NCBI GenBank assembly: GCA_030272155.1
Contig: CP126205.1
Coordinates: 1 to 64,000, forward strand
Length of the DNA: 64,000 nucleotides
Reading direction: 5' to 3'
From: Tetradesmus obliquus
Lineage: Eukaryota; Chlorophyta; Chlorophyceae; Sphaeropleales; Scenedesmaceae
A program made the position numbers and the translations under genes. Below, one piece after another: positions 17,356-60,599 of the stretch (its first letter is position 1; every line of letters begins with the position of its first letter). The notes beneath the pieces are model-generated. The model searched no databases. It was not told where the DNA came from and was given only the letters and a program-made list of their open reading frames with translations.

Positions 17356-18514
17356 ATGCTGCACAGCAGCAGGCCCGCCGGTGGCCTGTGTGCACTCGGA
17401 AGACATAAATCTCGGCCGATCAAGCAGCGGTTGGTGGCTGTCGCTTACACGAGCGGGCAAGCAAAGCAGGACCCAGCACTGGTACTGCAGCAGCAGCAAC
17501 AACAGGCTCCTGCAAGCCAGCATGGAGTGCTTGCAGCAGCTGAGCGGCTGGACCTGGACGAAGTGTGGGTGCCATACCGTTGGCCGGGGCAGCTGGGTGG
17601 CGAGGACGTGTACATCTCAGGTGAGGCAGCAGCAGCATGCAGTGGGCGCCTTCTGCTGACCGCAGCAGGGCAGCATGACCAGCAAGCAGCTGGAACCATC
17701 AGGACAAAATGGGATGGGAAAGGTATTAGCTGAACAATTCGTAATGGCATGTTGACTTCCTGCAAAGCGGAGACCGCCTGCTGACGCCAGAGAGGGGAGC
17801 AGTTGCATTTGTGCTGGCGTTACTGTGCCATGCTGTACAGGAGCCTGCAGCAAGCTTACACCATAATCCTGCTGTCGCTGCTGACCCTTTAACGTGCAAA
17901 TGGCATGCCCTTGCAGGCAGCTGGTGCGAGTGGAAGGAGCGGCATGTGAGCCTGCGCCACTGCAGCGCGTCCGCCAGCTACCCGGGCGACTGGGTGGCGC
18001 TGTTCAAGATGAAGACGGGCCAGCACGAGTACAAGTTCAACGTGGACGGCGGCTGGCGCGTGGCGCCCGGTGACCCGCTGGTCATGGACCCTGAGGTGCG
18101 TGAAGGCTGGGGGTGGGTGGTGCAGCCGCAGGAAACGTAGCAGAAGCAGCACCAGCAGCAATAGCAGCAACAGCAGCAGCAGCAGCACCAGGGCTGGCGC
18201 GTGAGCCTAGTGACCCGCTGGTCATGGACCCTGAGGTGCGCCAGAGGGGTGTTGGCAGCATAGCAGCACCAAGGCTTGTGTCGCAGCAGCAGCAGCACCA
18301 GGCCTGTGCCTCAGCAGCAGCACTTGCAGCAGTGTGTGCCTGGTGACCACCCGCTGGTCATGGACCCAGAGGGGCGTGAAGGCTGGGGGATTTGCGCAGC
18401 TGATGGTTGCTGGCGTCAGGCACGGGGGCAGCTGCGGCAACAGTACTGGCAGCAGTACAAAGTTCGGGAGCAGCATCATGCCTAAGACTTGATCGCAGCA
18501 ACAGGCGTGTGCCT

Positions 18515-18545
<31 letters not shown>

Positions 18546-19636
18546 GCACAGGAATGTCAGCAGTGCATCCTGCAGAGCTACACGTCATGCACCCAGAGGT
18601 GCTTGGCAGACGCAGCTGCAGGCGTACAGCCAGCTGCAGCAGGTGGACTTGCAGGTGTTTGTTTGCAGCACATCAGGTGCTTGGCAGCAGTGCATCACGT
18701 GCAGCAGTGCATCACGTGCAGCAGTGGCTCAATGTGGCCGCATGGCTGCTGAGCAGCCGAGCCAGCGCTTGTGCCGCAGCAGCTGCAGCAGCGCCAGGAT
18801 TGAACCTTGGTGGGCACGGCCTGCAGCGGGTGAGAGGACAGCAGCAGATCCCGCAACAATGGCATCTGTGGTGGCTGACCAGCAGACATGTGGCTACAGG
18901 GACTGAGGCTGGCTAGCAGCCGCTGTGCCGCACATGCTGGTGTACAGGCTGCAGCAAGGTCGCTCAGCACCTCAACTGTACTTCAACGTCGGTAGGTATT
19001 AGTCCTTCTGTACGCTGGCAGGCAGCGAATTTTCCTGCAAAGCCACAATGTGTCCAGCCACGGACGCTGCATCCATCCAAGGCTTGCTTCCTTGCTGCTG
19101 CTGCTGCTGCTGCCCTGCTGCGTTGCCCCCATGCTGCGCCCAGGGCAACATCAACAACAAGCGGCTGTGTGTGAAGAACTGCCACATCGAGTTCTGCTTC
19201 AAGTCCAACAGCCCGGTGGCGCGCTCGCCCCGCACTGTGATCAGCGTGATCGGCTCATGGAGCAACTGGAGGGTGAGCGGCAGGGCTGGCTGGCTGGCAG
19301 GCTGGCAGCCTGCGGGAGCCTTCGTGCAGCATTAGCAGCAGCAGCAGGCGAGGCACTTGGCGTGCAGCGAGGCAGGTCGCCCCACAATGAATGTGCTGGA
19401 GCGTGCCGGTTGCAGAGGCAGCGCTCCAAGCCTGCCATTGACTGCAGCCCAGGGCAGACATGTAGCAGCAGCAGCCCCACTGCAGCACGTGCAGGGGCGA
19501 CTTGAGCCACATGGCGTTGGCTGTTACATGGTGGCAGGGCATGAGCAGGCCACCAGCGACACTATACTAGCAGCAGCAGCAGCAGCGATGCAGGCTCGTT
19601 CACCAGTGCTACAAGCAGCTGAAGCACCTGCCCTTA

Positions 19637-19675
<39 letters not shown>

Positions 19676-22600: not shown

Positions 22601-24628
22601 CTTCCAGGACCCCACCGAGGTGGAGTGGATCGAGGACAAGCTGTGGAGCAACAGGCTGGACGAGGGCTGGGACCTACAGCAGGTGCGGGCCTGTGCGTGA
22701 AGGCTGTGGAGTGGTGTGCTGTCACTGTGGTGTGGTGTGGTGTGGTGTTGGGGTGGCCTGGTGGGTATAGGTGGGGTTGGGTGGGCTGCAGTGGGGAGGA
22801 GTGTGTGTAAAGGCACAATCTGTATGTCACTGCCGGGTGCACAGTGTTTCTGTGAATCAGCGTGATGTCCGTACATGCTGGTCAGAGGCGTGGCAGACTT
22901 GCACCTCATAGCTGGTCGGCTGCAATGCCCAGCGCACCGGGCCACTGCACCGCACACTGCGCAAACGTCTCAGTTCCTGCAGCCCCATCGTCTGTGGTGG
23001 CGTCATTGCCCACGAGCTAGGTGCAGGTACCAGCTGCATGTAATGGCTGCAGTGTGTTGCAGGTGCTACAGTGCATAAGATGGCCCACGCCACCTCCTGT
23101 TGACCTGGGCTGCTCCCTATACCCTCCCTGCCACCCGCAGGCGCTGTCCGCTGCCGGGGAGATGTTCAAGCTGTTCAACCGCGACTCTGCGGAGCGCGTC
23201 AAGTGGCTGGACAAGGGTCAGGAGCACCCGCACAGGGTGGCGCTGCAGGTGAGGGTGCGGATGGCTGTGCGGCTTGGGCACAGTGCGGGCATGGGTGGTT
23301 TCTTGGCAGCACTTCAACAAGGTGGTGCTCTCACACGGCTGAACATGCCTAGTCAAACCTCTTTGACAGCATGGACTTTGTTCTTTCGGCTCAGCTGCAA
23401 TGCATGCAGCTGGGGAAGTCAGCAAGCAAGCTGTTGTTCAGCTGTTGTGTGGTACAGCCCTGGATGCATGCCCTCCATTTCATCGTGGCTGCTGCTGCTG
23501 TCGTGCTGCAGGTGCACACTGCGGTGCTGGACGACCTCATCGAGCGGCTGCAGGAGGCCATCGACAAGCGCCAGCTGCAGGTGCGGCCAGGCAGCAAGTA
23601 GCATTCAGTTGGAATAAGCAGGACTCCCAGCATTGTGCACTTTACTGCTGTAGCACCGCCGTTGCTGCTATTGCAGCACATGCCGCACTCCTGGCAGCTG
23701 CATCACTGACACTGCACTGCTGCCGCATGATGCATCGCCGCCTTGTGTCACCTCCAGGCGCGCATCATCATGTCTGGCGCTGGCGACTGGCGCTACGTGG
23801 ACGTGGTGCACCGCCTGGCGGGCAAGCTGGAGGCGCTGGAGTGGGTGAGGCAGGTGTACGGCGTGCCAGTGGAGGTGAGGGGCCGGCCCATGGGCGGCGG
23901 CAGTTGAAGGGTGGGAGGCAGGTGCAGTGTGCTGCCGCTCCTGCTGCTTCAACGACACGTGCTCAGCTGCTGTGTCAACGAGGTATCCTGCTGGATAGGA
24001 TGTGTGTAATGCTGCCGCAAATCTGCAGCTGCCTGTCATGTGCCGTTGTGCTGCTGCATCTCTTGAGCATGGGTCTAGGCAATGCTGCAATCGCTGTTCA
24101 AGCTGTTGACATGGTGCTTTGTTGTGTGCTGCAGCGTTGCGCCACCGCTGGTGACAGCTGCAACGACATCCTCATGCTGGACGGCAAGATGCCTGCCATC
24201 GTGGTGCGTGAATGTGTACACAAGGATTGCGGCGTGGATGGCTGCCCTGCAGCACGCATGTTCAGCAGTGCAGCCGAACATTTCATGCCAGCATCTGGTG
24301 ACTATATGCCAGCGTGACAAAGCAGGTTTTGTGAGCCACAACACCTCTTTCCTTGCTGCATTGCTGGTGCTGGGAATGCATGCTACAGCAGTTTATCTGT
24401 GTCCTCTGCTAACTCGTCATAACACCCACACCATGGCCGTTTGCGCTGAAACACTTGCATGCTTTTTTGGCTGGCACGTGGCGTTGCTGCTGCCGCCAGG
24501 TGGGCAACGCGCAAGAGGAGCTGGTGCGCTGGTACCACGAGCAGAACGACCACGGCCGCATCGTGCTCACAGACAAGCCCGAGGCAGCAGGCGTGCTGGA
24601 GGGCCTGGCGCGGCACGGCCTGTACTGA
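17356..24628 (+). CDS. Carbohydrate-binding sucrose-phosphatase-like HAD protein, copy 1
   Basis: Sixteen phase-consistent exons give 722 residues: 17356-17620, 17917-18095, 19144-19272, 19685-19744, 20055-20183, 20393-20485, 20789-20947, 21201-21521, 21806-21900, 22204-22339, 22572-22682, 23141-23248, 23512-23580, 23758-23874, 24135-24203, 24500-24628. Residues about 70-148 form a CBM48/AMPK-type glucan-binding module (VYISGSWCEW, YKFNVDGGWRV). A second starch-binding-like module follows at 149-254 (SVIGSWSNWR, GEYSFRFMVGD), then a linker to 445. The HAD phosphatase of the sucrose-phosphatase/Cof type spans 446-722: motif I CADIDGT (Asp448, Asp450), motif II VFNTGRS (Thr492), a motif III Lys near 641, motif IV GDSCND (664-668). 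All key residues are present. The substrate is unproven; sucrose-6-phosphate or a glucan phosphate are candidates. The first 60 residues could include a transit peptide. A paralogue lies at 44499-50381. Confidence 0.9.
18065..18606 (+). repeat. Decayed tandem copies of exon 2's end (copy 1 gene)
   Basis: The end of exon 2, coding DPLVMDPE followed by GTGCGT, lies at 18071-18101. A near-perfect copy including a working-looking donor sits about 140 bp on (18192-18243). A third copy is at 18341-18387 with the donor changed to GGGCGT. A fainter fourth is at about 18573-18606 (GTCATGCACCCAGAGGTGC). All later copies lie inside the following intron. Confidence 0.85.
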
Positions 24629-24983
24629 GCAGCGCAATGCCCCCAGAGTTGCGGAGCGCGCACGCTAGTAGGCCCAGCCGTGGTGTGCGGTGTGTGGTGA
24701 AGCGTCACCAGCAGCGCTGAAGGGCTGGTGCGGCACGGGCTCTGCTGAGCGCCTTGCTGGCAGTGGTGTGGCGTCTTTGGTCCAGCAGGTGCAGCGGTGG
24801 TGGCGCGTGTGGCGAATCATCATCATTTGAAGGGCCTGGCACGCCACGTCTTGTACTGAGCGGCTCCGAAGCGATGGTGTGGCACATTTTCGCCAGCAGG
24901 TGCAGTCGTGGTGCATGGTGTGTAGCGATGCATCACCAGCAGCGCTCAGAGGCGCGGCATGGCCTGTATTGGGTGCCTTGTTA
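24596..24983 (+). repeat. Decayed tandem copies of the last exon's end and stop (copy 1 gene)
   Basis: The gene's final codons (GGCCTGGCGCGGCACGGCC, then TGTACTGA) recur in weakened form at 24718-24755, 24828-24866 and 24948-24981, about 110-120 bp apart. The flanking CACCAGCAGCGCT is shared by two of the units. All copies lie in the 3' flank. Confidence 0.75.
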
Positions 24984-27573: not shown

Positions 27574-28996
27574 TCAGCACAGCAGCTGCTGCTTGAGTGT
27601 GAGCAGCAGCGTGTCGCTTCCGGGTGCTGGGCGCAGCCCCGGGAACACCTCCATGGTGCGCAGCACATCAGAGTCGGCAAAGGACCAGGCCAGGCCGCCC
27701 CGCAGCAGCACCGCCAGCAGCAGCTTGACCTCTGTCATCACCAGGTTCATGCCCAGGCAGCTGCAGCAAGGGGGAAGGGAGGCATGGCAGCAGGCACGGC
27801 GCAGGGAGAGCGAGCGGCGGCAGATGGATCAGCAAGGAACCAAGGCATAGTGAACTTGGTTGGAAGGTGGCTGCAGGTACGTAAGCACACATGCACTGCC
27901 AACAGCACATTAGCTGCCTGCTGCTTAGGTTAGCCGCTGCCAGGATCGTGCTACCCACAGTGGCACTGACGCTGCCAGCACCTTGCTGCCTTCACAACAC
28001 ACTCACAGGTGAGGCCCAAAGCCGAACGTCAGCATGTGGCGCGGCCTGCTGGACGCGTCACCCAGCCAGCGCTCAGGCTGGAACGCGCCAGGCAGGCCGC
28101 CCTTCCAGTCCATGTAGGGAGGCACCACACTGCCAGCTGGGATGCTGGCAGGGCCCTCCCACAGTGTGGGCTCCAGTGCGTGCATGCAGTCCACACTGCA
28201 GATCATATAGGCGCTGCGTGGAATGTTCACGCCGCACAGGGAGATGTTGTCGGTGGCCTGGCGCATGACGACGCGCGAGGCGGGCAGCAGGCGCGTGACC
28301 TCGCGGATGCAGGCCTCCAGGCGCGGCATGTCACTCAGCACGGCTTGGTTGAGGGTGGGGCCGTGGGTGGACACCACCTGCAGAGTGTGCAGAAGACACA
28401 CAAAGAACATGAGGTAAGAAACAGCAGGCATGATCAACTGTGCCGATAAACAGAAAGCGATCGGTCATGTGCAGCTGATCACATGGCAGTCCCACGCAAT
28501 GCCAGAAGCTGCAACACTGTAAGGGCCCATGCCCTTTCACAGCCCACACCAGCACATGTACAGCTGCTAGAGCAAGCTCGGAAGGCTGTACTAGATATAA
28601 GGCGGTACTGCATACTGATATATCGTGACCCAGTAAGCTGCACAGGGGCCCCTGCACACACCGTGCCTATGCCTCAGGCTCCCCAGCCCCCGCCCACCTG
28701 CTGCTGCTCCTGCCGCAGCGCCTCCACCTGGTCAGGCAGCTGCCCCAGGATGGCCAGCACGGCAAAGATCATGTAGCGCGTGGTGTCAACAGCACCAATC
28801 AGCGTGCCCAGCAGCCGCATCGCGGCATTCTCCACGCTCAGCCGCTGCTGCGCGCGCAGCACCTCCAGCTGCGCCTCAGCCATGTTGGGAGGGGCCACGC
28901 TGCTGGCTGCTGCTGGCTTACCCAGCGGCGCAGCCGCATGCGCAGTGAGCTGCACTGGAGCAGCACCACTGCTGCCCTTGCCGCCAGTGCCAGCGC

Positions 28997-29043
<47 letters not shown>

Positions 29044-31337
29044 TCCCGCTCTTTCAGCCGCGCCACGCATGTCGCTGCTGCTGCCTGGTCCACCTGGGAG
29101 GCTGCGTCGCTGTGCAGCAGCTCATGCTTGCTGGCGCCATCGCCAGTCCTGAGCATTTTGGCGGCTGGCCCGACTAGTGCATCAGCACCCGGCTCGTTTT
29201 GCATCATTGTGGTAACAGAGTCCTGCGCGGCATTGCAGCAAGATCAGTCACTTTATATGCATTTGTTACTGCACACCAGCAAACTGAGATGTCAAACCAC
29301 CTAAACACATGTCAGCTGGTGACTTTCACATGCTGGGCAGATGCCGCCGTTGCAGGCTGGCACGCAAGCGCATCATAACACAGTCGGCTGGTTTCACAGG
29401 TCACATGTATGCGCGGTGTGCTCCGCCTGCATCCTGCTGCTGTTGCTGTCCGTCCAATCACAAGCGGTCCTTGATCCTGGCGCTGCTGTGCCCAGCCGCA
29501 TCATCCTCATCAACTCGACCCACCTGCAGCTCTCTGCTGAGCGCTGCCAGCAGCTCCTGCTTCGCCGCCAGTGCCTTGCTGAAGGTGTTGCCGGGCAGTG
29601 CCAGCGGCAGCGCGTACAGCCCTGCCAGGTACTGCAGCATGCGCGCCTTGAACCAGGCGCGGTCGGTGTGCACCAGCGGCACGCCCACCAGCACCTCGAT
29701 GGCAAACTCCAGCGCCATCTCACCCGTCTGGCAGGCAGAAGGGAAACATGCAGCGCAGGACAGAGCAGACACAAGTGAGCGCGAGCTGAGCCAGTGACCA
29801 CAACACGAAGTGAGGTGGCGGCGGATGGCTCAGCACCACCACCCAATAGCCAGACACAAAAGCGCAGGCAGAGCAGAACAGCAAAGAATCAAGCAACAGT
29901 GCATAGGAGCAGAGCCAGTGAACACGATGTGAATCGACGTGGCAGCAGGCAGAACAGCGACTCGCAGCAGCACAGCCTGCAAGCAGTTACACTGTAGTGC
30001 ACGACAACCGCTGCATACTGCACGCGCTCACTGTCACAGGAGTGAAGAGATGTATCAGCGTAAACAATCACAAGGCCTGCATGCAGGGGTGCACCGCTGC
30101 CCTCCTGCCCCGCCCCACCTCATGCAGCAGGCTGGCACTGCCACGCTGCGCCCAGCCATCCACGGAAGCCTGGATGATGCCTGCCAGGCGCGGCACGCAG
30201 CCTTCGATGCTGGCGGGTGACAGCGCTGTGGTCACGGCCTTGCGCCAGAAGCTGTGCACAGGTGCAGAATGGAGATGCAGCGCGGCAAAGCAAGGATTGA
30301 GCATCAAAGCCGCGGTACTGCATGGTGTGGCAGAACCTCCAAAGGACGGCCTGCAGGCTGCAGGGCCATGTGGTGCAACCACAAAGCTATGGATACACAG
30401 CGCAGCATAAACAGCAAACAGCAGCATACTGCACTTGCGCTGAGGTTAGTATGCCAACATGCATGCAGCAACTGCTGCTGCTGTGTTCCCCGAACGACTG
30501 CCATCCTGCTGTTGGCCTGGCCATGCAACCCTTGGCAGTGCCTCCCAAACAGCTGCCTCCAGGACAGCTGCCGGCAGCTGCTGAGTGAGCTGTCCGCCAC
30601 TCAAGGCCTTGCAATCCAGCTCCTAACTCACTCGTGCATGGGTCCGTCCACCATGTGGTCCCAGTCCTCCAGCAATGCATTGAAGGAGGCAAAGGGCACG
30701 CTGAAGGTGGTGCCGGCACCCCGCAGCACCTCACGCACGGCTGCAGGCTCCAGCACCACGTACACGCGCATGCCCAGCATGCTGGTGCGGTACACGCCGC
30801 CGTAGCGCAGGTAGCTGCGGCAACAGCAGCGGCAACAGCAGCAGCGGGTTCAAAAGCAGGCGGGCCGCAGCTTAAATGGCAAATGCAGCATGCTTGCATA
30901 GCAAGTATCGAAACGTACAGCAGAACTACAAGGATGCAGCAGTAGATATCCTCCTGAATGTAGGCTGGAGAGCTTGACTTTGAGCACACTTATCTCAAGG
31001 CCAAGCACAGCTGATGCCGTTCTTGTTGCAGTTTGTGTGCACTGCCATGCACGGCGCGCTGCTGGTGATGCTGTTGCATCATTGCAATTTCCCAGCTGCG
31101 ACTGTGCGTGATGGCCGGCTGTCCTCACCTGCTTATAAAGTAGCCGCATGGGTCGTTCTTCACTGCCAGCGTCTCTCCGATGAATGGCAGCAGCAACCTA
31201 GGCCCAGGCTGCCGCTTCTTGCCCAGTGCCAGCAGCACTGCTGTCAGAAGCACCACAGCCAAGCCAAGCACTGCCGCACCAGAGAGCTCCTCTAGAGGCC
31301 ACGGCAATATGTTGAAAACATCAGAGGCGGACTGCAT
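27574..31337 (-). CDS. Cytochrome P450, CYP85-clan-like
   Basis: Seven phase-consistent exons (31129-31337, 30632-30814, 30119-30251, 29524-29727, 28698-29222, 28007-28377, 27574-27760) give 603 residues. One N-terminal membrane anchor (LSGAAVLGLAVVLLTAVLLA) is followed by the Pro-rich hinge RQPGPRLLLPFIGET, whose LPFIGET resembles the CYP85/CYP26 clan. The I-helix GAVDTT spans 386-391. The K-helix ExxR is EVTR (444-447), the PERW motif is present, and the heme loop is FGFGPHLCLG with Cys543. It should be an ER-bound mono-oxygenase; the substrate is unknown, and sterols, carotenoids or other terpenoids are usual for the clan. Unusual: residues 244-379 carry a long low-complexity insert with a 15-Ala run just before the I-helix. 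An upstream in-frame Met at 31403 would add 22 Arg-rich residues; I prefer 31337 because the anchor then sits near the N-terminus. Confidence 0.93.
28997..29042. repeat. CTG/GCA microsatellite coding an Ala run in the P450
   Basis: About 15 uninterrupted triplets, read as Ala on the minus strand inside exon 5 of the P450. It is likely to vary in length between strains. Confidence 0.9.
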
Positions 31338-41277: not shown

Positions 41278-42793
41278 CAACCTGACGGCACGACAACCAG
41301 CACTGTGTAGGAGTGGTGACTGCAGGCTGAGGCGTGACTCCCCCAACAGCAACATGAACTTCGAGGCTGCCACCATTGCCGGCAGCGTGCGGAGTCAGAC
41401 ACGACAACACAGCCTGCTACAACAGACTTCAGCTGGGAGGACATGCTGCAACATAACAAACATCACCCAGTCAGCAACTGCTGATGACGATCTGTTTGTG
41501 ATCAACGCAGTGGCAGCACTTTGCAGTGTTGTCTTGTTGACAGTTGCTGCCGCTTGGCCTGCTGCTGCCCACCTGCGCAGCGACCTGTGCAGCGGCTGCC
41601 CCTGGCCAATGATGCCCAGGTGGCGCTGCCCGCAGCAGGGGCCGCATGCAATCAACTCCAGGTCCAGCTCCACAGGCAGCAGCACCACAACGTCTGAGCA
41701 GCAGAGGGGGTGGAATCATGGTGAAATGTTAGCATCGGATATCATCACCATGAAGTCACGCGTGTGACCAGATCCAGGTCCAGCTCCATGGGCGGCAGCA
41801 CCACAACATCTGAGCAGCAAAGGGGAGGGAGGGAAGAGTTGAAGCATTAAGCAGCCGTCATCATGTGAGGTCGCACATGTGACCAGTTCCACAGGCAGCA
41901 GCGCCACCTCATCCGGCCAGTGCGAAAGACATAAGGGCAAACAACTGTTCCTGGTGCGCAGCACCTGCCACATTTCTCTGGCCAGTCGTGCAGCCCCCAC
42001 CTGAGTCATGCTGCGACTCAGCAAACTTGCTGCCCTCCGGCCACCCGGTGACGATGATGTCCAGCAGCGCAGTCACACCGCCAGCCTGGATGAAGGGCAC
42101 TTGCAGCGGCGGCTTCAGCCCCACCTGGCAAGGCCGTGCCAGCAGGCAGCACAATGTGCAGCATGGGGCAGGCAGACGATGAGTAGAGTCATGTGCGGTG
42201 GTGTGCTTGGGTTGCAACGTTAGCAACAAAGGTTTGCACAGGAGGCATGCCAGCGCGCTGCTGGTGTGCTGCAGGGCAGGATGTGCCTGGCTGCCTTCCA
42301 GCGTGGGTGCGGCAGTAACTGGGAAACTGGCGGCAGCATCTGCCTGCTGTCAGGCCCCTCACCTCCTCCTGCAGCCGCATCATCTCCATCACTCGTCTCT
42401 GCAGCTTGGCCGAGCCTGGGCCACCAGTAGCAGTCCTACAACAGCACAGCCGGCCTGAGCAGCTGTTACAACTTGCTGCAACCACACAGCTGCAGCGTGC
42501 AATGCATGCGTGTCTGCCCACCCCACATGCGATGTAGACAGTTACACCAGGCGCAGTCCGCCTAGCGGCTCTGCAGGCCATGTTCCTGCTGCAGCACCAG
42601 CCATGGTAGGGCTGCAGACCCTGTAGCTGCACGGTTTGAGTGAAAAGCATTGGCTTCAGTGCCTCGCTCACCTCAGCCACTTCACCATTTCGGCCACCTC
42701 TTGCCTGCTGGCGGGGGGTGCTACAGCATCAGCAGCACGCAGGGCCTGGAAAGCCGCTGCAATGTTTTCCTCCTTGGACCACAAGCCCTCCAT
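36136..42793 (-). CDS. TPR protein of unknown function, 16 exons
   Basis: Exons in order: 42672-42793, 42363-42435, 42001-42124, 41573-41693, 41187-41225, 40928-41017, 40578-40716, 39962-40342, 39710-39763, 39338-39485, 38724-38896, 38408-38569, 37808-37977, 37293-37472, 36934-37098, 36136-36709. They join without a phase error to 904 residues. Tetratricopeptide repeats lie near residues 490-595 (GNAAYKAGQLQEALNFYRAA, then ...AKAWLRLAEACKAAGRWQLA). The N-terminal third is helical and may be armadillo-like (VPFIQAGGVTALLDIIVTGW). Exon 8 codes a Ser/Gly/Arg-rich loop and the last exon a Ser/Gln-rich tail. The exon 7/8 junction is the weakest (donor GTTATC, acceptor CAAG). TPR domains bind partner proteins; I cannot say which. 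The gene carries the most striking splice-site repeat in the window (38271-38421). Confidence 0.78.
38271..38421 (-). repeat. 14-bp minisatellite made of 5' splice sites
   Basis: About ten tandem copies of a 14-bp unit (minus strand GTGAGGCAGCACAG) start exactly at the end of TPR-gene exon 12. The last bases of that exon, TGAGGCAGCACAG, are the same unit with one change, so the array grew from the exon's own edge. Every unit junction reads CAG|GTGAGG, a good donor consensus and also an AG usable as acceptor. Because 14 is not a multiple of three, each alternative donor shifts the frame. Confidence 0.95.
41660..41914 (-). repeat. Decayed tandem copies of a TPR-gene exon start
   Basis: The start of exon 4 (true start 41693, reading DVVVLLPVELDLEL) is echoed upstream in the intron at about 41776-41825, still with its CTGCTCAG acceptor (equivalent start 41809, 116 bp away), and more faintly at about 41880-41914. 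Confidence 0.85.
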
Positions 42794-45803: not shown

Positions 45804-47545
45804 CGGATGCACGAGGGTGTGAGAGCCAGCGGCCATGACGTAAAGGTCCTGGTGAGCAGTGTACAGCAGTACGAGCACATGCTCAATGCAAGGCACGGCC
45901 ATCCAACTAGCAGCGCTGCAATCAAACCTGCGCTTACTGAAGCGCGCAGAAGCAGCGGCAAACGACGACCAACTCCTTTGCACCATCCCTGCTCAAGAAC
46001 AGTGCGCTGCGCAGTACCAAGTACCACACTTGGATGCGCCAGCTGCTGTTGCTGCTGCTGCCGACTCCCCACCCCAAGCCCAACTCGCACCTCCTGCAGG
46101 TTCCAGCCGTCGTCCAGCAGGTGTGCGTACCCGGGGTCTGGCGCCCACCTCCTGCCCGCCACGTCCCACATGAAGATCTTGGTGCCCACTGCGGTGATGA
46201 TGGCGGAGGGCCATGGCATGATGCCCGACTTGCGCTGCAGCAGGCCCTCAACCATGCCTGCAGGGAAATCGAGGGACATGGTGCGGTTGTGAGTTGCAAT
46301 GCATGCACTAGAAGTTGCCCGCCCATGCAGGCCCTCCACCGTGCCTGGCGGTGGTGTGGCAGGCAGGGGCAGCAGGCAGGCAGGGAAAGCAGCACGTGGA
46401 CAGTGTGAGACATGTTGCCATTCGGCAGGGCATGATGCCTGACTTGAGCTGCAGCAGACCCTCCATGCCTGCGAGGTGCAGTGGGCGGCAGCAGGGGCCA
46501 GTAGCAAGCATGGGAACAGGCACACGTGCCTGGCATGCACTAGGGTGGCAGCTGCTAGGGGTGAAGCTTGTCACATGCTGCAACAGCGGTGAAGCAGAAA
46601 GTTCGGGTCCACCCCACAGCTGTATCAATATAACCCTGAATACCCTACACAGCACACACAACCAATGAGTTTCAGCAAACCCCGCTGCTGCTGCTGCTGC
46701 TGCTGCGTCACTCCCCAGCTGTGCAGCAGGCCGTCCTGCAGCCCCAGGCGCCGCACCTATGGAGCGTCCCGTGTTGAACACGATGAGCCCGCCAGCCGGC
46801 GCCAGGTACTGCGCAAAGTGCTGCGCGCACAGGTAGGTCAGCTCGTCGTTCTGGCGCACCCAGTCGCCCTCCTCGCCGTCCTCAATCAGAGTGCCATCCA
46901 GGTCCGTGCACTGCAGGCAGAAAACAGGCAGGGCTGTGGGAGGCACTCGCAGGCACATGATGGCAGCATGTCCTTTCCTTCCTCGCCATCCTCGATCAGC
47001 GTGCCGTCCAGGTCAGTGCACTGCATGCGATAAACGCGCAGGGCTGTAAGAGGCATTGCAAGCACAAGGCGGCAATGGCCGGCAACTGCTGTGATGCCGC
47101 ACAAGCATTATACCTCCACATGTCGTGCCCTCAGCAGCATGAGCAGTGGCAGCTGAGTGGCATCATCATAGCAACATTGGTCAGCAGCTGCTGCAAATTC
47201 ACATCATCACACTCCCCCTCCTCACCAGCATGAGTGGTGGCAGCTGGCTGGCGTCATCCGGCCGCAGGCTGCCCCCCTTCAGCCGCCACACCCCTGGGCG
47301 TGCTGCAGTGTACAGCCCACTGCCGGGCGGGTCACGCTCCACCGCGATGCCGTTGTTATTTTTCTTGTTGTACACGTTGCTGCTGCTGTTGGGCCAGCCC
47401 TCCTCCTCCTGGCCAGGTGGATGGTGAGACAGTGCAGCAGCGGCAGCGGAAGCAGGCGGCAGCATGACGACCACTGGACAAAACAAGAGCTGCTGCGCGC
47501 ATGTCAAAGCAGGCAGCGCAAGCTGCAGGCATCTGCTTGCCATGC

Positions 47546-47580
<35 letters not shown>

Positions 47581-50381
47581 GCTCACCATGGTGCTCAGCG
47601 TGGAGAGTGTGGAGCTGGAGTCGAGTGTGGCGCCGCTGATGCTGAACTCCAGGCTGCAGTCGGGGCCAGGGGCGGGCAGGTGTGCCAGCATGAGCCCGCT
47701 GCAGTCGGGCTGGTGGTGCATGCGCAGCCGGCGGGGCGCACCCTGCAGGCAGGCAGGCAAGCAGCACAGTGCAACACCAAGCATGTGTTGCGGGCGTAAT
47801 GCAGGCCAAAGCACAACCCAAGGAAGGCGAAGAGGTTGCTCAACCAGCCGCCACGCAACGAATGATCCACGTGCATGGCGTGGGCTGGTGCCAGCTGCAT
47901 GCGCTCGCACTGTGGGCGATGATCCACTGCACAGCGCCACAAGCCGCCCTCACCTGCTGTCCTGAGAACCTGTAGGTCACATAAGCCTCGCTGAAGCTGG
48001 TGTGGTACAGCAGCCGAAAGGTGGGCGGCGCAGGCACGCGCAGGCTGTTGGCAGTGGCCCCGCTGGGCAGCGTCTCCAGCGGCAGGTGCTGCAGCACCGC
48101 GTACTGCGCTGGGCTGGCCTGCGCCAGCATGCCTGCCATGGGCTGGAACACGCCCGGCTCCTGCTGCTGCGCGTTGAGCAGGAAGCGGAAGCTGTGGTGG
48201 CCCGGCTGCAGCAGGGAACAGCACATGGGGAGCGCAGTGCGGGCGAGGTGAAAAGGCAGCACAGACCGCAATGTTGTTGGCAGTGATTGCTGTGTGTACC
48301 AGCCCCCGCACTATACAACTGATAGTCGCACAGGGCTGGCTGCTGCTGCTGTGGCCTGTGCGCTCATCAGGCACGTTACCAGCACTGCTGCAGGGAGCAG
48401 GCAACCAAGCTGCTGACCGCACAGCACCATCGCGCGGGTGAAACCGTCGCCGGCCCAACGCTGGTGTGTGTCTGCTGCACTAGTCTGCTGCAGGCAGTGC
48501 GCTGCCCACTAGCCAGCAGCCCTGGCCCCTCACCGGCAGCGACACGTCGCAGTGGTAGGCGCCATCAGCGCCCAGCGCCATGGGGATCACCACCTGGCAG
48601 CAGCAGCAGGCAGCAGCAGGGACCACAGGCAAAACGGCGGTTTCACCAGCTGCCTGCCCATCAGCTGTAGTCAAGCATGTCATGAGCTCATCTGACCCTG
48701 AGATTGGTTGCTGGCTGGCACCTGCCGCTGCAGCTGCATTGCTCTAGTGCATGTTGGCAACAGCTGCCTGCTGCTCCAACTGCAAAAGCTGCTGAATATG
48801 TTGCTGCTTCCAGCTCGCCTCTTTCAGCCTGCTAGGTTAATACCTAGCCTGACCAGCTGCTGCTGCTGCTGCTGTTGTGAGGCTTGCACAGCCAGCCAGC
48901 CAGCCAGCTGACCGGCCAGCCAGCCAGCCAGTGCGTCTGCAATGCGCGCCGCACCTGCCAGCCGGTGAAGCTGCCGATGAGGTGCACGCTCTGCTCACTC
49001 GGCCGCGGGCCCGCGAAGGCTGCGGGGAAGCTGAAGCGCACCAGCTTGCGCCCCGCGGTGCTGTTGTTCACGCAGCCCTGCAGGGGTCGTTGTGCAGCGG
49101 CAGCAATGCATGAACACTTATGCCAAATACACACAACCAACTGCAACACGTATGGACTGGCAGGCACGCCACAGTGCTCGCTGCTGTTGTTGCTGAATCC
49201 AGCGCAGCTGCCGCAGTGTGCTGCTGTTGCCTGTGTACATGACGTGCAGCCCCGCCAGCCAGCCAGCAGCGCGCACCTGCATGTCTGCTGCTGCTGCGTC
49301 TGAGCGCGCCAGGTGCCACTTGCCAGCCACATTGTACTTGTACGTCAGCTCCTGCAAGGACACAATATTTGCAGAAACATGCACGATGCGCAGATCAGCA
49401 ACAGACTGCAACAGACTGCCTAGCTCTGACAATGTACTTGTACGCCAGCTCCTGCAACCGTTTGCAGACACATGCGCAGGTACAGGTCACTACATGTAGC
49501 AGCAGCTGCTGCTGTTGTACTTGTACGCCAGCTCCTGCAGGACACATGCACGATGCACAGACCAGCAAGTGCTAGCAGCAGCTGCTGCAGTCCCAGCGTG
49601 CATCGCAGGTAGGGATCAGTACAGCGGCAGCCCTAGGCACGCAAGTCAACAGTGGACTCAACTCAGCTTGGCAGGTCAACGCCCCCCAACCGCCGCTGCT
49701 CGCGCCATGCTGCCAGTTCAGCTGAGATAGCAGCAGCTGCTGCAGCTGCGTCATCATTGACAGTGGCTGTTCAAGCAGGGCCAGGCACTTATCACCTAGC
49801 CAACGGTGTGTCAGGTCAACCAGCTGCAACCGCCACATGACTCTCACCCCATGCTGTGATGCATCCAGCTCCAGCACGATGCCTGCCTCGCCGGTCCCAG
49901 GGTCAATAGGCAGCGTGATGTTGAGGCTCCAGTCATCCCAGGAGCCTGCAGCAGCAGCAGCAGCAGCAACTCTAAGCATCCTGCGCAGCACAGGCACTAG
50001 CAGAAAGCCAACCAACCGCCCTGCTGCATGTCCCAGCGCACCTGCCAGCTGCACGGGCTCGCTGGAGAAGAAGTCCGGCTTGAAGGGGATGTACTTCTTC
50101 TTGCCGGCTCCATGCAGCACCAGCTTCTGCTGCTGAGGCTCCTGCTGCACCGCGCTCTGCACTAGCTGCTGCTGCTGCTGTTGTTGCTGGGCAGTGGCAG
50201 TGGCAGTGGCCTGCTGCTGCTGCTGACTACTGAGCAGGCGCAGCCCCGCTGTCCAAAGGGAAGCATCACGTACACGGACACAGCGTCTTCGGCCGTGTCT
50301 CTGCTTCCAAGGGGCAGGAGCGTGATGCGCTGCTTGTTGCAGGGCACCGAGCCCTTGCATTGTTGTGGTGTCACAGAGCAC
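44499..50381 (-). CDS. Carbohydrate-binding sucrose-phosphatase-like HAD protein, copy 2
   Basis: Thirteen phase-consistent exons: 50042-50381, 49848-49945, 49277-49351, 48955-49077, 48534-48593, 47954-48205, 47587-47742, 47226-47408, 46757-46910, 46091-46257, 45588-45752, 45003-45221, 44499-44702; 731 residues (724 if Met 50360 is used). A basic, Gln-rich N-terminus could be a transit peptide. A first glucan-binding module has GSWDDWSLNITL and ELTYKYNVAGKW; a second has HLIGSFTGWQ and PGHHSFRFLL. The HAD domain spans about 430-731: CTDLDGT (Asp432, Asp434), VFNTGRS (Thr476), KG near 615 and AGDSGND (Asp637). All sucrose-phosphatase-type motifs are intact. Several exon edges fall at the same places as in the 17356-24628 paralogue, but exons are fused here that are split there. 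The two glucan modules suggest action at starch granules; the substrate is unproven. Confidence 0.9.
46215..46475 (-). repeat. Echoes of an exon start in the copy 2 gene
   Basis: True exon 10 starts at 46257 (CAG|GCATGGTTGAGGGCC). A copy with its own acceptor starts at 46468 (CAG|GCATGGAGGGTCTG) and runs about 40 bp. A shorter copy starts at 46344 (CAG|GCACGGTGGAGGGCC). Both lie in the intron before the true exon. Confidence 0.85.
46876..47072 (-). repeat. 110-bp tandem duplication of the HAD motif-I exon start
   Basis: The exon start coding CTDLDGTLIEDGEEG (true start 46910) is duplicated with its acceptor and flanking intron; the echo starts at 47020. The intron motif GGGCTGT is also duplicated (46931 and 47041), fixing the period at 110 bp. 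The echo still reads CTDLDGTLIEDGEEG. Using its acceptor with read-through into the true exon would shift the frame. Confidence 0.92.
47128..47255 (-). repeat. Echo of an exon end with a lost donor (copy 2 gene)
   Basis: The exon 8 end, QLPPLML then GTGAGG (true end 47226), is repeated 91 bp into the intron (equivalent end 47135), where the donor GT has become CT. Confidence 0.8.
49340..49550 (-). repeat. Three copies of an exon start (copy 2 gene)
   Basis: The exon 3 start, CAG|GAGCTGACGTACAAGTAC at 49351, is echoed at equivalent starts 49451 and 49534. Both echoes read GAGCTGGCGTACAAGTAC and keep a TGCAG or similar acceptor. Both lie in the preceding intron. Confidence 0.88.
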
Positions 50382-51697: not shown

Positions 51698-53522
51698 GCG
51701 CTGCCGCAGGCAACTGGGACGTGATTGGCGAGCATCTACAGCAGCACCTTGACCCGCAGCAGACGCTGGTGCACGCCTCAACAGCCAACTCCAGGTGCGC
51801 AGGCCCGCTGTTACCGCCTGGCTGCTGTGCCGTGCATGCTGCTACTAACTACTGCAGCAGGGTCAATGCAGATCAACTCAGCAATGTCTGCTGTCTGCGC
51901 CACTGCTGTAGGTTTGCCATGTATGACTCCATTGACACCTGTGGTGCATTGCATGCTGCTGCCTTCCAATGCAACAGGGTGTACACAACACAACCCACCC
52001 CTGCCTGCATCTGTGCCGCTGCCGCAGGTTTGCCACATATGACGGCATCGACACCTGTGGCAGCCGCCTGGCTGATGAGCTCCGGGGCCTGGTGGCGGCA
52101 CAGCCGGGGCTGACACGGCTCAGCATCGTGGCACACAGCATGGGCGGGCTCATGGCGAGGTGCGTGGCGGGCAGCTGCAGCAGCAGCAGCAGCTGCAGCA
52201 TTGTTGCGCACAGCATGGGCGGGCTCATGGCATGGTGCGCTGGGGCAGCAGCAGCAGCAGCAGCAGCAGGCATGGGGTGGCCACCAATGCAGTAGAGGTT
52301 TGGTGCGCAGCGCAAGCCCACAGCAATCTTCATGATGCTTCTTGCAAGCGGGAAGTTGTGGCGTGACGGTTGTGGCGTTCCAGCTGAGGACGTGACAACG
52401 CGCTTCGTTGCTGCATCTAGTGTTTCTGTTGCTTGTCACGATTCCAGCTCTTCCTGTCACCCTCCATCCTCCACGCACCCCCTACATGTGATTCACCCGC
52501 ACTGCTGCCGCGCAGGTACGCCATCGGCCAGCTGTACAACCCTGCCAGTGGCACCATCTGCGGGCTGCAGCCGGCGCACTTTGTCACGCTGGCCACACCA
52601 CACTGCGGCTGCGATGCTGATGGCGTGGCGCAGGTGGGCTGGCTTGAGCGGGGCGGGGGAGGGTTGAGGGGGCAAGCATACAAACACAGTTTGATTGCTG
52701 GCAGGATCAGTGGAAGACGGGTACTCACAGGCGTGAACCAGCATGGGCTATGCACAGCAGCAGCAATGTTTGGCAGTGACGTGTGCTTCAACTTGTGCCA
52801 CACTCCTGATACTGGCTGGGAGGTGCTGGCTGCAACAGCAGCTGCGTTGATTGATACTGACGCCCAGGCGCATGTCAGATGCCTGGGACATGCCCGTGGA
52901 AAGTCCCTAGCGCTTCTTGGCCTGACTGGCACCTGACTGCTGCTGCTGCTGTTGCTGCTGCCATGCCTCAGGTGCCGTTCATCGGGTGGACCACTGAGCT
53001 GCCGCTGCTGGGCCAGCAGCTGTTCAGCTTCCTGCAGGGCGTCAGCGGGCCAACTGCTGCGCTGCTGTTCAGGCGCACCGGGCAGCAGTTCTTCATGCTG
53101 GACGGGCAGCAGCAGCAGCAGCTAGGTGCAGCAGCTGGCAGTGATGCCACTGCGGCTGCCAGCAGCAGCAGCAGCAGCAGTGAGCTGCCTGTGCTGCTGC
53201 AGCTGACTCAGGACTGCCCTGACCGGGGACTGTTCTTCTACTCCGCATTGGCTGCCTTTCAGAGCCGCACCTGCTACGCCAACACAGGTGGGGCGCGCTG
53301 GTGGAGCAGTTTGCATTCAGCTGGCTGGTGGCTCTGCTGTTGTATGGCAGCACTGGTGACGTAGCAGGATCCTGCCGAGATGTGCACAAGTCTTGTTGCC
53401 GTCTCTGCAAGCCGTGTGCTACGGACACTTCAGTGTGCCGTTGCAGCACTTCGTGGGTACAAGTGCAGCTATGTCTCGGCATCCTTGCATCCTTCCCTGT
53501 CATGCATGTGCTATGTGTTGAC

Positions 53523-53554: not shown

Positions 53555-53959
53555 TGCGGACCACCTGGTGGGCTACGCCAACTCCTCGCTGCGTAGCCTG
53601 GGCCAGCTGCCGCCGCTGCCGCCAGCAGCAGCCAGCGCCAAAGGGGTGGTGCTGGAGGACCCCCTGCCTGCTGCCTTCTTCCCGCAGACCTGGCAGCAGC
53701 TGCAGCAGCTCTGGCAGCAGCAGCAGCCGCCGCCTGCTGCTGGCCCAGGCGCAGCAGGCTCTAATGGCAGTGTGCCATCAGTAGGGGAGCTGTTGGCGCA
53801 GCCGCACCAGCCCAGCCGCACCTGGCCAGTGCCGCCGCCACAGGTGGCAGCAGCAGCAGCAGGCACAGCAGCCTGGCATGAGATCAGTAAGACTGGAGAC
53901 AGCAGCAAAGCTAATGGGAGGGAGAATCTGCCAGCCAAACCTGGGCGCTGGGTGCCCGT

Positions 53960-54011
<52 letters not shown>

Positions 54012-55768: not shown

Positions 55769-56068
55769 ATGGTCAGCCGGCATCCCTCAAAGACAGCCAG
55801 GGAAGGTTTCTGAAGAGGCTGCAGGTGACTGCTGCGGGGCTCCCTGCTGCGTAATCAGTGCAGCAAAGGGCTACTGCGCAAGCCTGCTCACATCTGCTCA
55901 TGTTGCTGCATGCAGTGCTATCGCTGCTGTAGAACCACTGTAAGCTGCGACCGACTCCAGTGCTGTGACTGCTGTTGGCTGCAGGCTGGGGAGCGGGGTG
56001 ACCGTGAGGTGGCCTTCTATGGAGCCATCGAGCAGCACCGGCAGCAGGTGGACCCAGCAGCTACAGAA

Positions 56069-56108
<40 letters not shown>

Positions 56109-57015: not shown

Positions 57016-57061
<46 letters not shown>

Positions 57062-58089: not shown

Positions 58090-58170
58090 GCAGGGCTGTG
58101 TGGTTATGCACGATGTGAATGCGTTTGCTTGCAAAGGGTCTTGTAGGTCAAGGACCTGCAGGCTGTCCTC

Positions 58171-58175
58171 TGTAA
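58171..58175 (+). terminator. TGTAA polyadenylation-type signal
   Basis: The chlorophyte poly(A) motif TGTAA occurs about 80 bp after the inositol kinase stop codon. Position and motif fit; use is not proven. Confidence 0.4.
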
Positions 58176-58339
58176 AACCTGGCTGTCTTCTAGCCCTTGA
58201 ACAGTCGTGGTTCTTTGTGCCTGTACCTCAACCCCAGCGAGTCAGCTTGCCTTCTTGTATATACAACGTTCGCCCATATTAATCAGTAGATATCATTGCG
58301 TCAGTGTAGTCACGATCGGATCCTCCACACCACCTCACG

Positions 58340-60599
58340 ATGGCACTCCAGAGCAAGGCCAGCTGCACCGTGCGTGCGCCATTCACCGCAGCACGCAATG
58401 TTCGTTCGGTGCGTGTCGTGTGCTCGGCACAGAAGCCGGAGAAGCAGCCTGAGTTCACCAAGAGGTGAGGACAGGTGTGAGTGGTGGGAAGCAGCTAGAG
58501 TTCCTGGATTCCCCAGCAGCAATGCATGTTTTTTTACGGAATCTAGCATTTATGAATTGATACGTTGTCAGACAGCCAAACTTGCATTCATTACACCGAG
58601 TAGGTGCTGACAGAAAGCCCAGAACAGGCTTGCTGTAGTGCTGGGTAGTAGTGGTTGCTGTACACTACAGGCACATTGCCAGGACTTGCTGCTGTTGTAT
58701 CCAACAGCACGGCACAAGCATACTACTTGAACAACAGTATGATCATCAGCAGCGGCGGCAACTGCAGCAGCAGCAGCAGCGACAGCGGACTGTCATGCAA
58801 CTCCACCACAGCCAGGGCGTGCTGGCATTCACCAGACCACCATAAAGTAACAAGCTTAGCGGTGTCTGAGGTGTGCATCTGTCTAAGTTAGCCTCACCTC
58901 TGCAAAGACACACATGTGCGCCTACTCTCACGACGCAACTCAGATGTAACCCCCGCTCACGCCACCGCACATGTGCTGCCACCTGCTGCCACTATCTGCC
59001 CTGCAGGGAGCTGATGCTCAACAGCGTCAACGTCCCAGTGCTGGCCAGCATGTTCAACGCCAACAACAACCTGCCCAACACTGCTGCTGCTACTGCTGCT
59101 GCTGCTGTCACCGCCTGCCCTGCAGGGAGCTGATGCTGAACAGCGTCAACGTGGGCGTGCTGGCCAGCCTGTTCAACTGGGGCGCAGTGGCGCGGCCCAA
59201 CACGCTGGGCGTGCAGAGCTACGGGCCCAGCATCAAGACGCTGGGGCTGTGCCCACCCACACCCAACTGCATCTCCACAGCAGGTGCGCTGCTGCTGCTG
59301 GTGCTGGGAGTGCTGGAGGCAGCAATGACGCGTGGGTGGTGCAGCTGTCAGCAGCAGCGCAAGTCACAGCAGCGCAGCTGTGGGCAGATCGGCCAGCAGG
59401 CACAGCTTTAACGTAGCAGTGTTTGATTGTGTGTGTATCTGAAGGGCTGGTGGTGTGTGCCCCCAGCTGTGCAGCTCTGTAAAGATGGACAGTCTGTGTC
59501 TGTTGCAGTGGCGCTGCCAGCGGTGATATGCCTTCATCAGCTGCCTGCTGATGCACAGCCGCAGCTCTGGCAGACCCACGCACTTTACTAACCTTTCATA
59601 CACACTCCACGCCCGTCATGCCCTGCCAGAGGAGATGAACGACGGCGACCACTACGTCCCTGCCTGGACCTACAACCCCGAGGACGGCCGCGGCCGCAAG
59701 GGCCCCATCAGCCGCGAGCAGGCCATGGCGGAGCTGGCCGAGGTGGTGGGCAGCATCAAGCCGGACAAGTTTGAGCCCAAGATCGTGAAGCAGACAGCTG
59801 ACTACCTGTACGTGGAGTTCCAGAGCCCCACCTTTGGCTTCATTGATGATGTGGAGGTGAGGTTGCGGTGTTGGCGCGGCGGCAGCAGCAGCAGCAGCAG
59901 CATGTGCAGTGTAGGAACAGCTCGACATGTCCACCTTCGGCCTCGTGTCTGATGTGAAGGTGAGGCTGCAGCGCTTGAGCAGCGGCAGCAGCAGCTTGCG
60001 CTGTGCAGCCGTAGCTGGCAAGCTGATACATTGCGCCAGCAGCACAGGCAGGGCTGCCAGCAGGCGTGCGTGCCAGCTGCCTCCCTCTGGTTGAACATCT
60101 CAAGCTAGCATTGTCTACAGCGGCTGCTGCTGACGGTCACTGCTGTGGCCCTGTGTCTGCTGCTGCAGTTCTACTTCCCTCCCGGCAACAGGTCTGTGGT
60201 GGAGTACCGCAGCGCCAGCCGCATCGGAGAGAGCGACGGCAACATCAACAGGTGCGGGCAGGCAGGCTCGAGGATGTGGTGGATATAACTGTGATATTCC
60301 GCATTCAGCGCAAGCTCCTCGGCTGCCAGCAGGAGGAAGCAGCAAACACTGCCTCGACTGGGTGATACGCCTGCAGCCAGCATGCTAAGCGCAGAAAAGC
60401 GCTTAGCAGTGCTTGTCTGCTTTCGCGTTGAGGTGTGCATGCTGTGGCATACAGTGCTGTGGAGAGTTTTGCATCCTGGCAGCTATTACTCAGCTCATCC
60501 TGTCGCGCTGCTGCTGCTGCTGCTGCTGGCTGCAGGAAGCGCATCAAGGCCATCCGCCAGGCACTGGAGAAGAAGGGCTGGGCCACCACCGGATACTGA
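58340..60599 (+). CDS. Plastid-targeted DUF1499 protein
   Basis: Five phase-consistent exons (58340-58464, 59126-59283, 59630-59856, 60169-60251, 60536-60599) give 218 residues. The N-terminal 40 residues (MALQSKASCTVRAPFTAARN, then VRSVRVVCSAQ) are a typical chloroplast transit peptide with a VxC-like cleavage site. The rest matches DUF1499: LGVQSYGPSIKTLGLCPPTP, NCIST, then HYVPAWTYNPE, KQTADYLYVEFQSPTFGFID, VEYRSASRIGESDGNINRKR and a C-terminal RIKAIRQALEKKGW helix. In plants and algae such proteins are found in the chloroplast, some in the thylakoid; the biochemical role is unknown. It is the only gene here almost free of low-complexity runs. Start chosen as the first Met giving the transit peptide. 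A TGTAA signal lies at 60954. Two of its exon edges are echoed in introns. Confidence 0.9.
58995..59165 (+). repeat. Echo of an exon start in the DUF1499 gene
   Basis: CCCTGCAG|GGAGCTGATGCT occurs at 59007 and, 119 bp later, at the true exon start 59126. About 55 bp match; the first copy reads ELMLNSVNVPVLASMFN and the second ELMLNSVNVGVLASLFN. The first copy has an acceptor but no good donor soon after, and 119 is not a multiple of three, so it cannot simply be included. Confidence 0.9.
59820..59965 (+). repeat. Echo of an exon end in the DUF1499 gene
   Basis: The exon 3 end, coding PTFGFIDDVE then GTGAGG (true end 59856), is repeated 103 bp on as STFGLVSDVK then GTGAGG (equivalent end 59959). 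The echo keeps a full donor. Confidence 0.88.

What the first reader, a model, noticed from the sequence alone, without database searches (positions are those of the whole stretch)
18065..59965. Recurrent exon-edge echoes: decayed tandem copies of splice-site-bearing exon ends in introns
At least six genes in this window (two HAD phosphatases, TPR protein, lipase, DUF1499 protein and the organelle protein) have extra copies of one of their own exon edges in the adjacent intron or 3' flank. Each copy spans the splice junction, and most keep the GT or AG. Spacings are mostly 75-140 bp (75, 91, 100, 103, 110, 116, 116, 119, 140). Both donors and acceptors are affected, and the copies are at various stages of decay. 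Random intronic duplications should not centre on splice junctions so often. Tandem duplication of AGGT-containing exon segments is a proposed route to new introns; here the repeated centre is the existing junction. It could be a genome-wide mutational process or a source of decoy splice sites.
Basis: partly seen in the sequence, partly recalled or inferred. Interest (0 to 1): 0.92.

Follow-up and report, generated by a model that had tools for sequence, protein, structure and literature searches.

The report
Tandem duplications straddling exon edges
In a green alga, short stretches of DNA that straddle the ends of exons are often copied side by side, and the spare copies appear to be spliced out and to decay inside introns; it matters as a visible way in which introns grow.

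Summary
The echoes are real. The genome is Tetradesmus obliquus. The echoes are mostly head-to-tail tandem duplications (median offset about 120 bp) that cross an exon edge, and they are not confined to the window: 45 of 412 sampled splice junctions lie in one. Unbroken-frame database proteins for two echo-bearing genes lack the echoes, so the spare copy seems to be spliced out. Decay is near neutral by synonymous share and by survival of the decoy GT/AG (64 of 81 kept, 77% expected), with an unexplained excess at codon position 3.

The premise that random duplications should not centre on junctions is only partly right: geometry alone makes 46-58% of tolerated genic duplications involve an exon. 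Still, 33 of 39 families do, against 19-21 expected. The window alone is not significant (9 of 12 against 6.6, p=0.10); the sampled stretches are (24 of 27 against 14.9, p=2.5e-5). An exon-masked test did not show the excess. A residual exon-edge bias is likely; whether it is mutational or selective is not settled.

The parts
17917..18095 (+). functional exon of HAD gene 1 (AMPK1_CBM + S6PP), donor at 18096
   Evidence: HMM gene model; P0138 joins ...DPLVMDPE to GNINNK
18205..18240 (+). donor echo 1 of 18065-18100 (140 bp downstream)
   Evidence: 94% identity over 36 nt
18349..18389 (+). donor echo 2 of 18073-18113 (276 bp downstream)
   Evidence: 95% identity over 41 nt
24597..24633 (+). 3' end of HAD gene 1 coding sequence with stop codon 24626-24628; source of an array of about four copies across the stop, not a splice junction
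   Evidence: C-terminus EGLARHGLY in P0138
24719..24971 (+). three decayed copies of the stop-codon segment (24719-24750, 24828-24864, 24951-24971)
41573..41693 (-). functional exon of the TPR gene; acceptor side at 41693
   Evidence: gene model not checked against a transcript
41759..41830 (-). acceptor echo (116 bp upstream in gene direction); a further decayed copy at 41883-41920
   Evidence: 82% over 72 nt; TRF 116 bp x 2.0
46091..46257 (-). functional exon of HAD gene 2; acceptor side at 46257
   Evidence: protein identical in OEZ86_009494
46426..46463 (-). acceptor echo of 46212-46249 (214 bp)
   Evidence: 89% over 38 nt
46757..46910 (-). functional exon of HAD gene 2 (CTDLDGTLIEDG...), acceptor side at 46910
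46977..47055 (-). acceptor echo of 46867-46945 (110 bp), copies abut
   Evidence: 82% over 79 nt
47129..47167 (-). donor echo of 47220-47258 (91 bp); the donor GT is lost in the echo
47226..47408 (-). functional exon of HAD gene 2; donor side at 47226
49277..49351 (-). functional exon of HAD gene 2; acceptor side at 49351
49429..49539 (-). two acceptor echoes of 49329-49357 (49429-49457 and 49515-49539)
   Evidence: 93% and 96%
51894..51944 (+). acceptor echo of the lipase exon (source 52010-52060, 116 bp)
   Evidence: 82% over 51 nt; copies abut
52028..52159 (+). functional exon of the DUF676 lipase; echoes on both sides
   Evidence: not checked against a transcript
52196..52239 (+). donor echo of 52121-52164 (75 bp)
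   Evidence: 89% over 44 nt; TRF 75 bp x 2.0
58996..59058 (+). acceptor echo of 59115-59177 (119 bp) in the DUF1499 gene
   Evidence: 90% over 63 nt
59126..59283 (+). functional exon of the DUF1499 gene; acceptor before 59126
   Evidence: not checked against a transcript
59630..59856 (+). functional exon of the DUF1499 gene; donor after 59856
   Evidence: not checked against a transcript
59910..59984 (+). donor echo of 59807-59881 (103 bp)
   Evidence: 68% over 75 nt

Best explanation
The echoes are local tandem duplications of about 100-150 bp that include an exon edge. Shown: most copies lie head to tail; the spare copy lies on the intron side of the functional edge in 38 of 40 edge-crossing families; database proteins of two affected genes are unbroken frames that omit the echoes; the spare copies, decoy GT/AG included, decay near the neutral rate; the process is found well outside the window, and some units have grown into arrays of 3 to about 8 copies. 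Inferred: units inside exons are purged, while units that cross an edge survive because splicing still uses the outer site and removes the extra copy, so introns lengthen and protein does not change. Inferred: the duplications arise by fill-in and end-joining at staggered breaks (paired nicks), as described for small tandem duplications in other species. Seen in the main count but not explained: duplications that involve exon edges outnumber intron-only ones by more than geometry and detection predict, so either their birth or their survival is probably biased toward exon edges.
For: Tandem structure: aligned copies cover a median 92% of the unit in exon-involving families and lie 20 bp or less apart in 33 of 50; offsets have median 120, quartiles 96 and 148 (merged families with both-exonic ones left out). 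Side of the echo: 38 of 40. Spread: 94 loci and 107 families (40 crossing an edge, 10 with the matched part inside an exon on one side, 42 non-coding only, 15 with both copies predicted exonic); 12 of 21 sequences with usable junctions have at least one junction inside a repeat. Junction coverage 45 of 412. Spliced out: P0001 (607 aa) and P0138 (722 aa) are unbroken frames that match my spliced CWC22 and HAD 1 models at 99% and 98% and hold no echo; annotated OEZ86_009494 equals my spliced HAD gene 2 over 603 aa. Near-neutral decay: differences at codon positions 1/2/3 are 135/1254, 97/1255 and 257/1248 over 83 echoes (not independent: arrays count several times), 227 of 489 synonymous against about 42% expected for a neutral echo plus synonymous change in the exon (and my arithmetic); GT/AG kept in 64 of 81, expected 77%. 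Excess at edges: 33 of 39 against 21.4 (p=1.5e-5); median p=0.0017 with one family from each of 16 groups, namely 13 stretches and 3 window groups.
Against: An exon-masked, age-fair version of the test did not show the excess: 1 edge-crossing family of 27 in genic sequence, where simulation gave 19-25%. Of the other 26, 19 overlap repeats that are linked to an exon, mostly echo-echo pairs in edge-derived arrays, which that test miscounts; but it stands as a test that failed to confirm. Junction coverage leans on rich places: without the window and the three stretches L010, L030 and L032 it is 3.9% of 258 junctions, no higher than deep-intron coverage there (5.3%, both copies counted). Window alone: 9 of 12 against 6.6, p=0.10. 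The ratio of differences at codon position 3 to position 2 (2.7) is above my neutral simulations (1.3-1.6), so weak coding constraint on some echoes is not excluded; offsets divisible by 3 are 22 of 50 exon-involving families, somewhat over a third. Exon edges come mostly from my own self-trained gene finder; it invented at least one 21-nt exon (18622-18642, absent from P0138). The count test keeps 39 groups: both-exonic families, units over 260 bp and families without a usable intron were dropped, the 18065, 24597 and 51894 families among them. Break-repair origin was not tested; copy boundaries show no clear link to simple tracts (p=0.63).
Confidence: 0.72

Rival explanations
1. A junction-targeted mutator: duplication births are concentrated at exon edges, for example through transcription- or splicing-linked R-loops and paired nicks.
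For: 33 of 39 families involve an exon against 21.4 expected; repeat coverage peaks at the last 15 exonic nt (15.1%) and falls to about 5-7% at intron +30 to +60; the exon part of echoes clusters at 40-59 nt in 21 of 46 against 18% simulated.
Against: The copy at the stop codon (24597) involves no splice site; the exon-masked test showed no excess; coverage rises again to 10-15% beyond intron +180, where only long introns contribute; the exon-part peak is by my reading weaker among families with abutting copies, where the breakpoint is reliable; higher birth in exonic DNA generally, with purging inside exons, would look the same.
Confidence: 0.28
2. Geometry and ascertainment only: uniform tandem duplication, tolerated off coding sequence, with better detection next to conserved exon sequence; no true edge excess.
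For: Random placement plus tolerance already gives 46-58% exon involvement; the window alone is not significant; the exon-masked test found no excess.
Against: A detection factor of 2, above the simulated maximum of 1.36, still leaves p=0.0007; the excess persists without L010 and L032 (23 of 28 against 15.3, p=0.0006).
Confidence: 0.25
3. Alternative or mutually exclusive exons: echoes are kept as usable exons.
For: Some echoes differ from the exon mainly at synonymous sites (for example 46977-47055: 0, 0 and 6 differences at codon positions 1, 2 and 3); in L010 a 60-nt exon end is repeated about four times with acceptor-like and donor-like sites, and my finder calls the copies small exons.
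Against: Overall synonymous share is 46%, near the neutral 42%; eight of the nine window spacings are not multiples of 3; the two database proteins contain no echo; GT/AG is lost at the neutral rate.
Confidence: 0.08
4. Intron birth by tandem duplication of an AGGT-bearing exon segment (Rogers model).
For: Tandem units of the right size next to splice sites.
Against: The repeated centre is a pre-existing junction with intron sequence on one side; the copies lengthen an existing intron and create none in the genes whose spliced product was checked.
Confidence: 0.03

Closest known systems
Intron gain or change by tandem duplication crossing an intron-exon boundary (potato RdRp gene; PMC4974935, abstract and introduction read)
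   Same: A tandem duplication crosses an existing intron-exon boundary and splicing absorbs the extra copy.
   Different: There a new intron and a cryptic donor arose once; here the existing intron simply lengthens, and it happens at many junctions of one genome.
Tandem exon duplication and mutually exclusive exons (PMC9013439, results section and passages; PMC6071210, passages)
   Same: Exon sequence duplicated into the neighbouring intron; unannotated copies in introns.
   Different: Here mostly partial exons (one edge), decaying, with no sign of use in the two genes checked. 3.8% of exonic nt (2205 of 58533) have a non-exonic copy of 80% identity or more within 600 bp, against about 2% in human, 0.08% in fly and 0.06% in worm in PMC9013439 (different method and search range).
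Small tandem duplications from break repair (CST/Pol alpha-primase and paired nicks; PMC8355091, passages)
   Same: Head-to-tail short tandem duplications; no mobile element is invoked.
   Different: The mechanism was not tested here; the passages read say nothing of an exon-edge bias.
Internal gene duplication (Gao and Lynch 2009), known here only as cited in PMC4974935
   Same: Intragenic duplications are common in eukaryotes.
   Different: The original paper was not read, so its size range and edge positions could not be compared.

Membership tests
Local tandem duplication / short minisatellite | copies head to tail, abutting | tested here: met
   median unit coverage 0.92 for exon-involving families, 0.91 for non-coding ones; copies 20 bp or less apart in 33 of 50 exon-involving families
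Local tandem duplication / short minisatellite | neutral divergence between copies | tested here: inconclusive
   fit neutrality; the position-3 to position-2 ratio of 2.7 exceeds the simulation
Mutually exclusive / alternative exons | coding constraint on the spare copy | tested here: inconclusive
   46% synonymous against about 42% neutral; weak constraint on a subset not excluded
Mutually exclusive / alternative exons | spare copy included in mature transcripts | tested here: not met
   P0001 and P0138 lack echoes; two genes only, transcript origin inferred
Rogers-type intron gain | new intron whose two ends are the duplicated exonic segment | tested here: not met
   in the families read, the duplicated segment contains an existing junction and intron sequence
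Introner-like elements | many similar copies dispersed in the genome | tested here: inconclusive
   one locus tested: in the search with window 58900-59500, 57 of the 58 matches elsewhere fall on query 165-237 around the CTG tract and one on 381-426; the tool skips very common words
Paired-nick / break-repair tandem duplication | birth at staggered breaks by fill-in and end-joining | not testable with these tools
   needs new mutations or induced nicks

The most novel reading that the evidence does not exclude
Tetradesmus obliquus has a duplication process focused on exon-intron boundaries: births of 100-150-bp tandem duplications are several-fold more frequent at exon edges than in neighbouring intron, so that splice junctions are mutational hotspots from which introns grow.
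Probability: 0.28. Interest if true: 0.8.

Novelty: new variant of a known kind. Interest (0 to 1): 0.5.

Why it matters
How introns lengthen and how new splice sites arise is usually inferred from a few isolated cases. Here one genome shows many junction-crossing duplications at different stages of decay, so birth, tolerance and loss can be measured directly. If the edge bias is mutational, splice junctions are hotspots for structural mutation.

Tried and rejected
Echoes as alternative exons: this looked strong on the first loci read by eye (7 of 7 differences synonymous at 46977; entry). The full count over 83 echoes brought it back to near neutral; a position-3 excess remains unexplained.

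A null that placed matched segments at random (27 edge-crossing of 46 against about 10 expected) overstated the excess, because a tandem block must fit its intron. I replaced it with full-unit (31 of 41 against 23.1, P=0.003), forward-simulated and per-intron nulls.

Exon-part length peak at 40-59 nt: significant as run (KS p=3e-6), but truncated alignments contribute. I did not rerun it on abutting copies only; by eye the peak is weaker there.

Exon-masked, age-fair test: 1 edge-crossing of 27 genic families against 19-25% in simulation, so it does not support the excess. 19 of the other 26 overlap exon-linked repeats, which makes the test hard to read.

CAG-tract-mediated duplication: distance from copy boundary to simple tract does not differ from control (p=0.63; within 15 nt 18% against 9%, 33 boundaries). 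Microhomology at breakpoints was not measured.

First gene-finder run drifted to CAG repeats and was discarded. One BLAST script timed out.

Because of the exon-masked result I lowered the best explanation from 0.75 to 0.72 and the targeting reading from 0.30 to 0.28, and raised the geometry-only rival from 0.22 to 0.25.
Full report
What was checked. The window is the start of contig C15 (4,553,750 bases) of a 104.66-Mb genome in 17 contigs. A protein search found Tetradesmus obliquus OEZ86_009494 on a contig of that same length, identical over 603 aa to my spliced model of the HAD gene on the minus strand. Five genes carry them: HAD phosphatase 1 (17.5-24.6 kb, plus), a TPR protein (36-42 kb, minus), HAD phosphatase 2 (44.5-50.1 kb, minus), a DUF676 lipase (51.7-53 kb, plus) and a DUF1499 protein (59-60.6 kb, plus). 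My finder runs the lipase, an IPK domain and DUF1499 into one chain, so gene borders there are uncertain. The family at 24597 crosses a stop codon, not a splice site.

Sampling and gene models. I fetched 25 stretches of 10 kb. One was dropped because it reads N, so the counts rest on the window plus 24 stretches (304,000 bases, 2,500 of them N). The stretches were chosen at even places, not at random: ten each from contigs 1 and 2 and one each from five others. With no annotation at hand I trained a simple gene finder on the sequence itself. It gives clean splice signals (donor CAG|GTG(A/C)G, acceptor CTGCAG|G), a median of about 280 bp for confident introns, and 272 exons with codon score 7 or more (58.5 kb). 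Checks: it reproduced annotated HAD gene 2 over 603 aa and nearly all of HAD gene 1, but there it added one false 21-nt exon and missed 6 residues. The TPR, lipase and DUF1499 models were not checked against a transcript.

What the echoes are. Offsets of 40-600 bp give 378 repeat pairs without the telomere array (668 with it) against 9 at control offsets. They group into 107 families. Extended alignments show copies lying head to tail; in 33 of 50 exon-involving families they are 20 bp or less apart. Offsets have median 120 bp, quartiles 96 and 148. Several have become arrays: a 102-bp acceptor unit in about five copies in the CWC22 gene (L032), a roughly 116-bp donor unit in about eight full or partial copies in L012, and 124-148-bp units in L030 and L033. 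In 38 of 40 edge-crossing families the spare copy lies on the intron side of the functional edge, so splicing between outer sites leaves the protein unchanged.

They seem to be spliced out. P0001 (607 aa) and P0138 (722 aa) are unbroken reading frames matching my spliced CWC22 (374 aa, 99%) and HAD gene 1 (663 aa, 98%), and neither contains an echo. P0001 lies on contigs of at most 3,224 bases, while the matching part of the gene spans about 5.5 kb of genomic DNA, so I infer a transcript origin; the source does not say so. For P0138 the inference rests only on the unbroken frame across a gene of many introns (its longest contig is 7,359 bases). My CWC22 query had the duplicated exons left out by hand, but P0001 lacks them independently.

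They decay about neutrally. Over 83 echoes, differences by codon position are 135 of 1254, 97 of 1255 and 257 of 1248; 227 of 489 changes are synonymous (46%), where random change would give 27% and a neutral echo facing a conserved exon about 42% (and my arithmetic). Echoes in one array share history, so these are not independent. The splice dinucleotide survives in 64 of 81 echoes against 77% expected from exon-part identity (donors 34 of 47, acceptors 30 of 34). Against full neutrality, the ratio of position-3 to position-2 differences (2.7) exceeds simulations (1.3-1.6); the base-composition counts do not settle why. Offsets divisible by 3 are 22 of 50.

Are junctions special? Among tolerated duplications with 120-bp units in introns of a few hundred bp, many must cross an edge by geometry: 46-50% in forward simulation, 56% for random full blocks (23.1 of 41, where 31 were observed, P=0.003), up to 58% with old ages and more indels. 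Observed after merging: 31 exon-involving against 6 intron-only in genic territory. These 39 exclude both-exonic families, units over 260 bp and families without a usable intron; the 18065, 24597 and 51894 families of the window fall out for such reasons.

Results that point the other way. With exons masked, so that only intron sequence can be matched, 1 of 27 genic families crosses an edge, against 19-25% in simulation. Nineteen of the other 26 overlap exon-linked repeats: they are largely echo-echo pairs within edge-derived arrays, which the masked test counts as intron-only. The test therefore does not refute the excess, but it does not confirm it. Repeat coverage along 412 junctions peaks in the last 15 exonic nt (15%), drops to about 5-7% at intron +30 to +60 and to about 1-5% deeper in exons, then rises to 10-15% beyond intron +180, where only long introns contribute. 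The drop inside exons is expected from purging. Without the window, L010, L030 and L032, junction coverage is 3.9% of 258 against 5.3% for deep intron with both copies counted. I conclude that a residual edge bias is likely but not proven, of about 1.5-fold in share, cause unknown: more births in exonic or edge DNA, or selection.

How common. 45 of 412 junctions lie inside a repeat (offsets up to 300 bp); with offsets to 600 bp, 12 of 21 sequences with usable junctions are hit, and the CWC22 stretch is extreme at 17 of 30. At 80% identity or more, 3.8% of exonic nt have a non-exonic copy within 600 bp (2205 of 58533; 2.0% without the window, L010 and L032). A published survey reports about 2% for human, 0.08% for fly and 0.06% for worm with a different method (PMC9013439, results section).

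Relation to known work. A tandem duplication across an intron-exon boundary is known in a potato gene, where it made a new intron (PMC4974935, abstract and introduction). Small tandem duplications arise at breaks with protruding ends through fill-in and end-joining (PMC8355091, passages). In the ten paper searches run I noticed no report of exon-edge duplications at this density or of an edge bias; only the listed hits and the papers named were seen, and the library omits most subscription journals. The Gao and Lynch survey of internal gene duplication, known here only by citation, is the most likely place for overlap.

Noticed in passing
window 1-498: Array of the 7-base unit CCTAAAC (about 71 copies): the window begins at what looks like a telomere of contig C15.
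   Followed up: partly
window 4201-4384 and 4644-4827; also 4459-4643 with a copy 3452 bp downstream: Near-identical direct repeats of about 184-185 bp close to the contig end (scores 182 and 181); not identified.
   Followed up: no
window 38271-38420: Perfect 14-bp minisatellite TGCTGCCTCACCTG, about 10.7 copies.
   Followed up: no
L010 5376-5946: A 60-nt exon end is repeated about four times (period 148) with acceptor-like and donor-like sites, so that the copies look like small exons; a candidate for true alternative exons.
   Followed up: partly
L032 3768-9468: The CWC22 spliceosome-factor gene is the most affected stretch: 17 of 30 junctions inside repeats.
   Followed up: partly
83 echoes counted: Echo-exon differences are more concentrated at codon position 3 than the neutral simulation gives (ratio to position 2 of 2.7 against 1.3-1.6).
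   Followed up: partly
window 27581-31240, minus strand: Predicted gene that looks like a cytochrome P450 (FGFGPHLCLG motif, recalled), read by eye; no family search was run.
   Followed up: no
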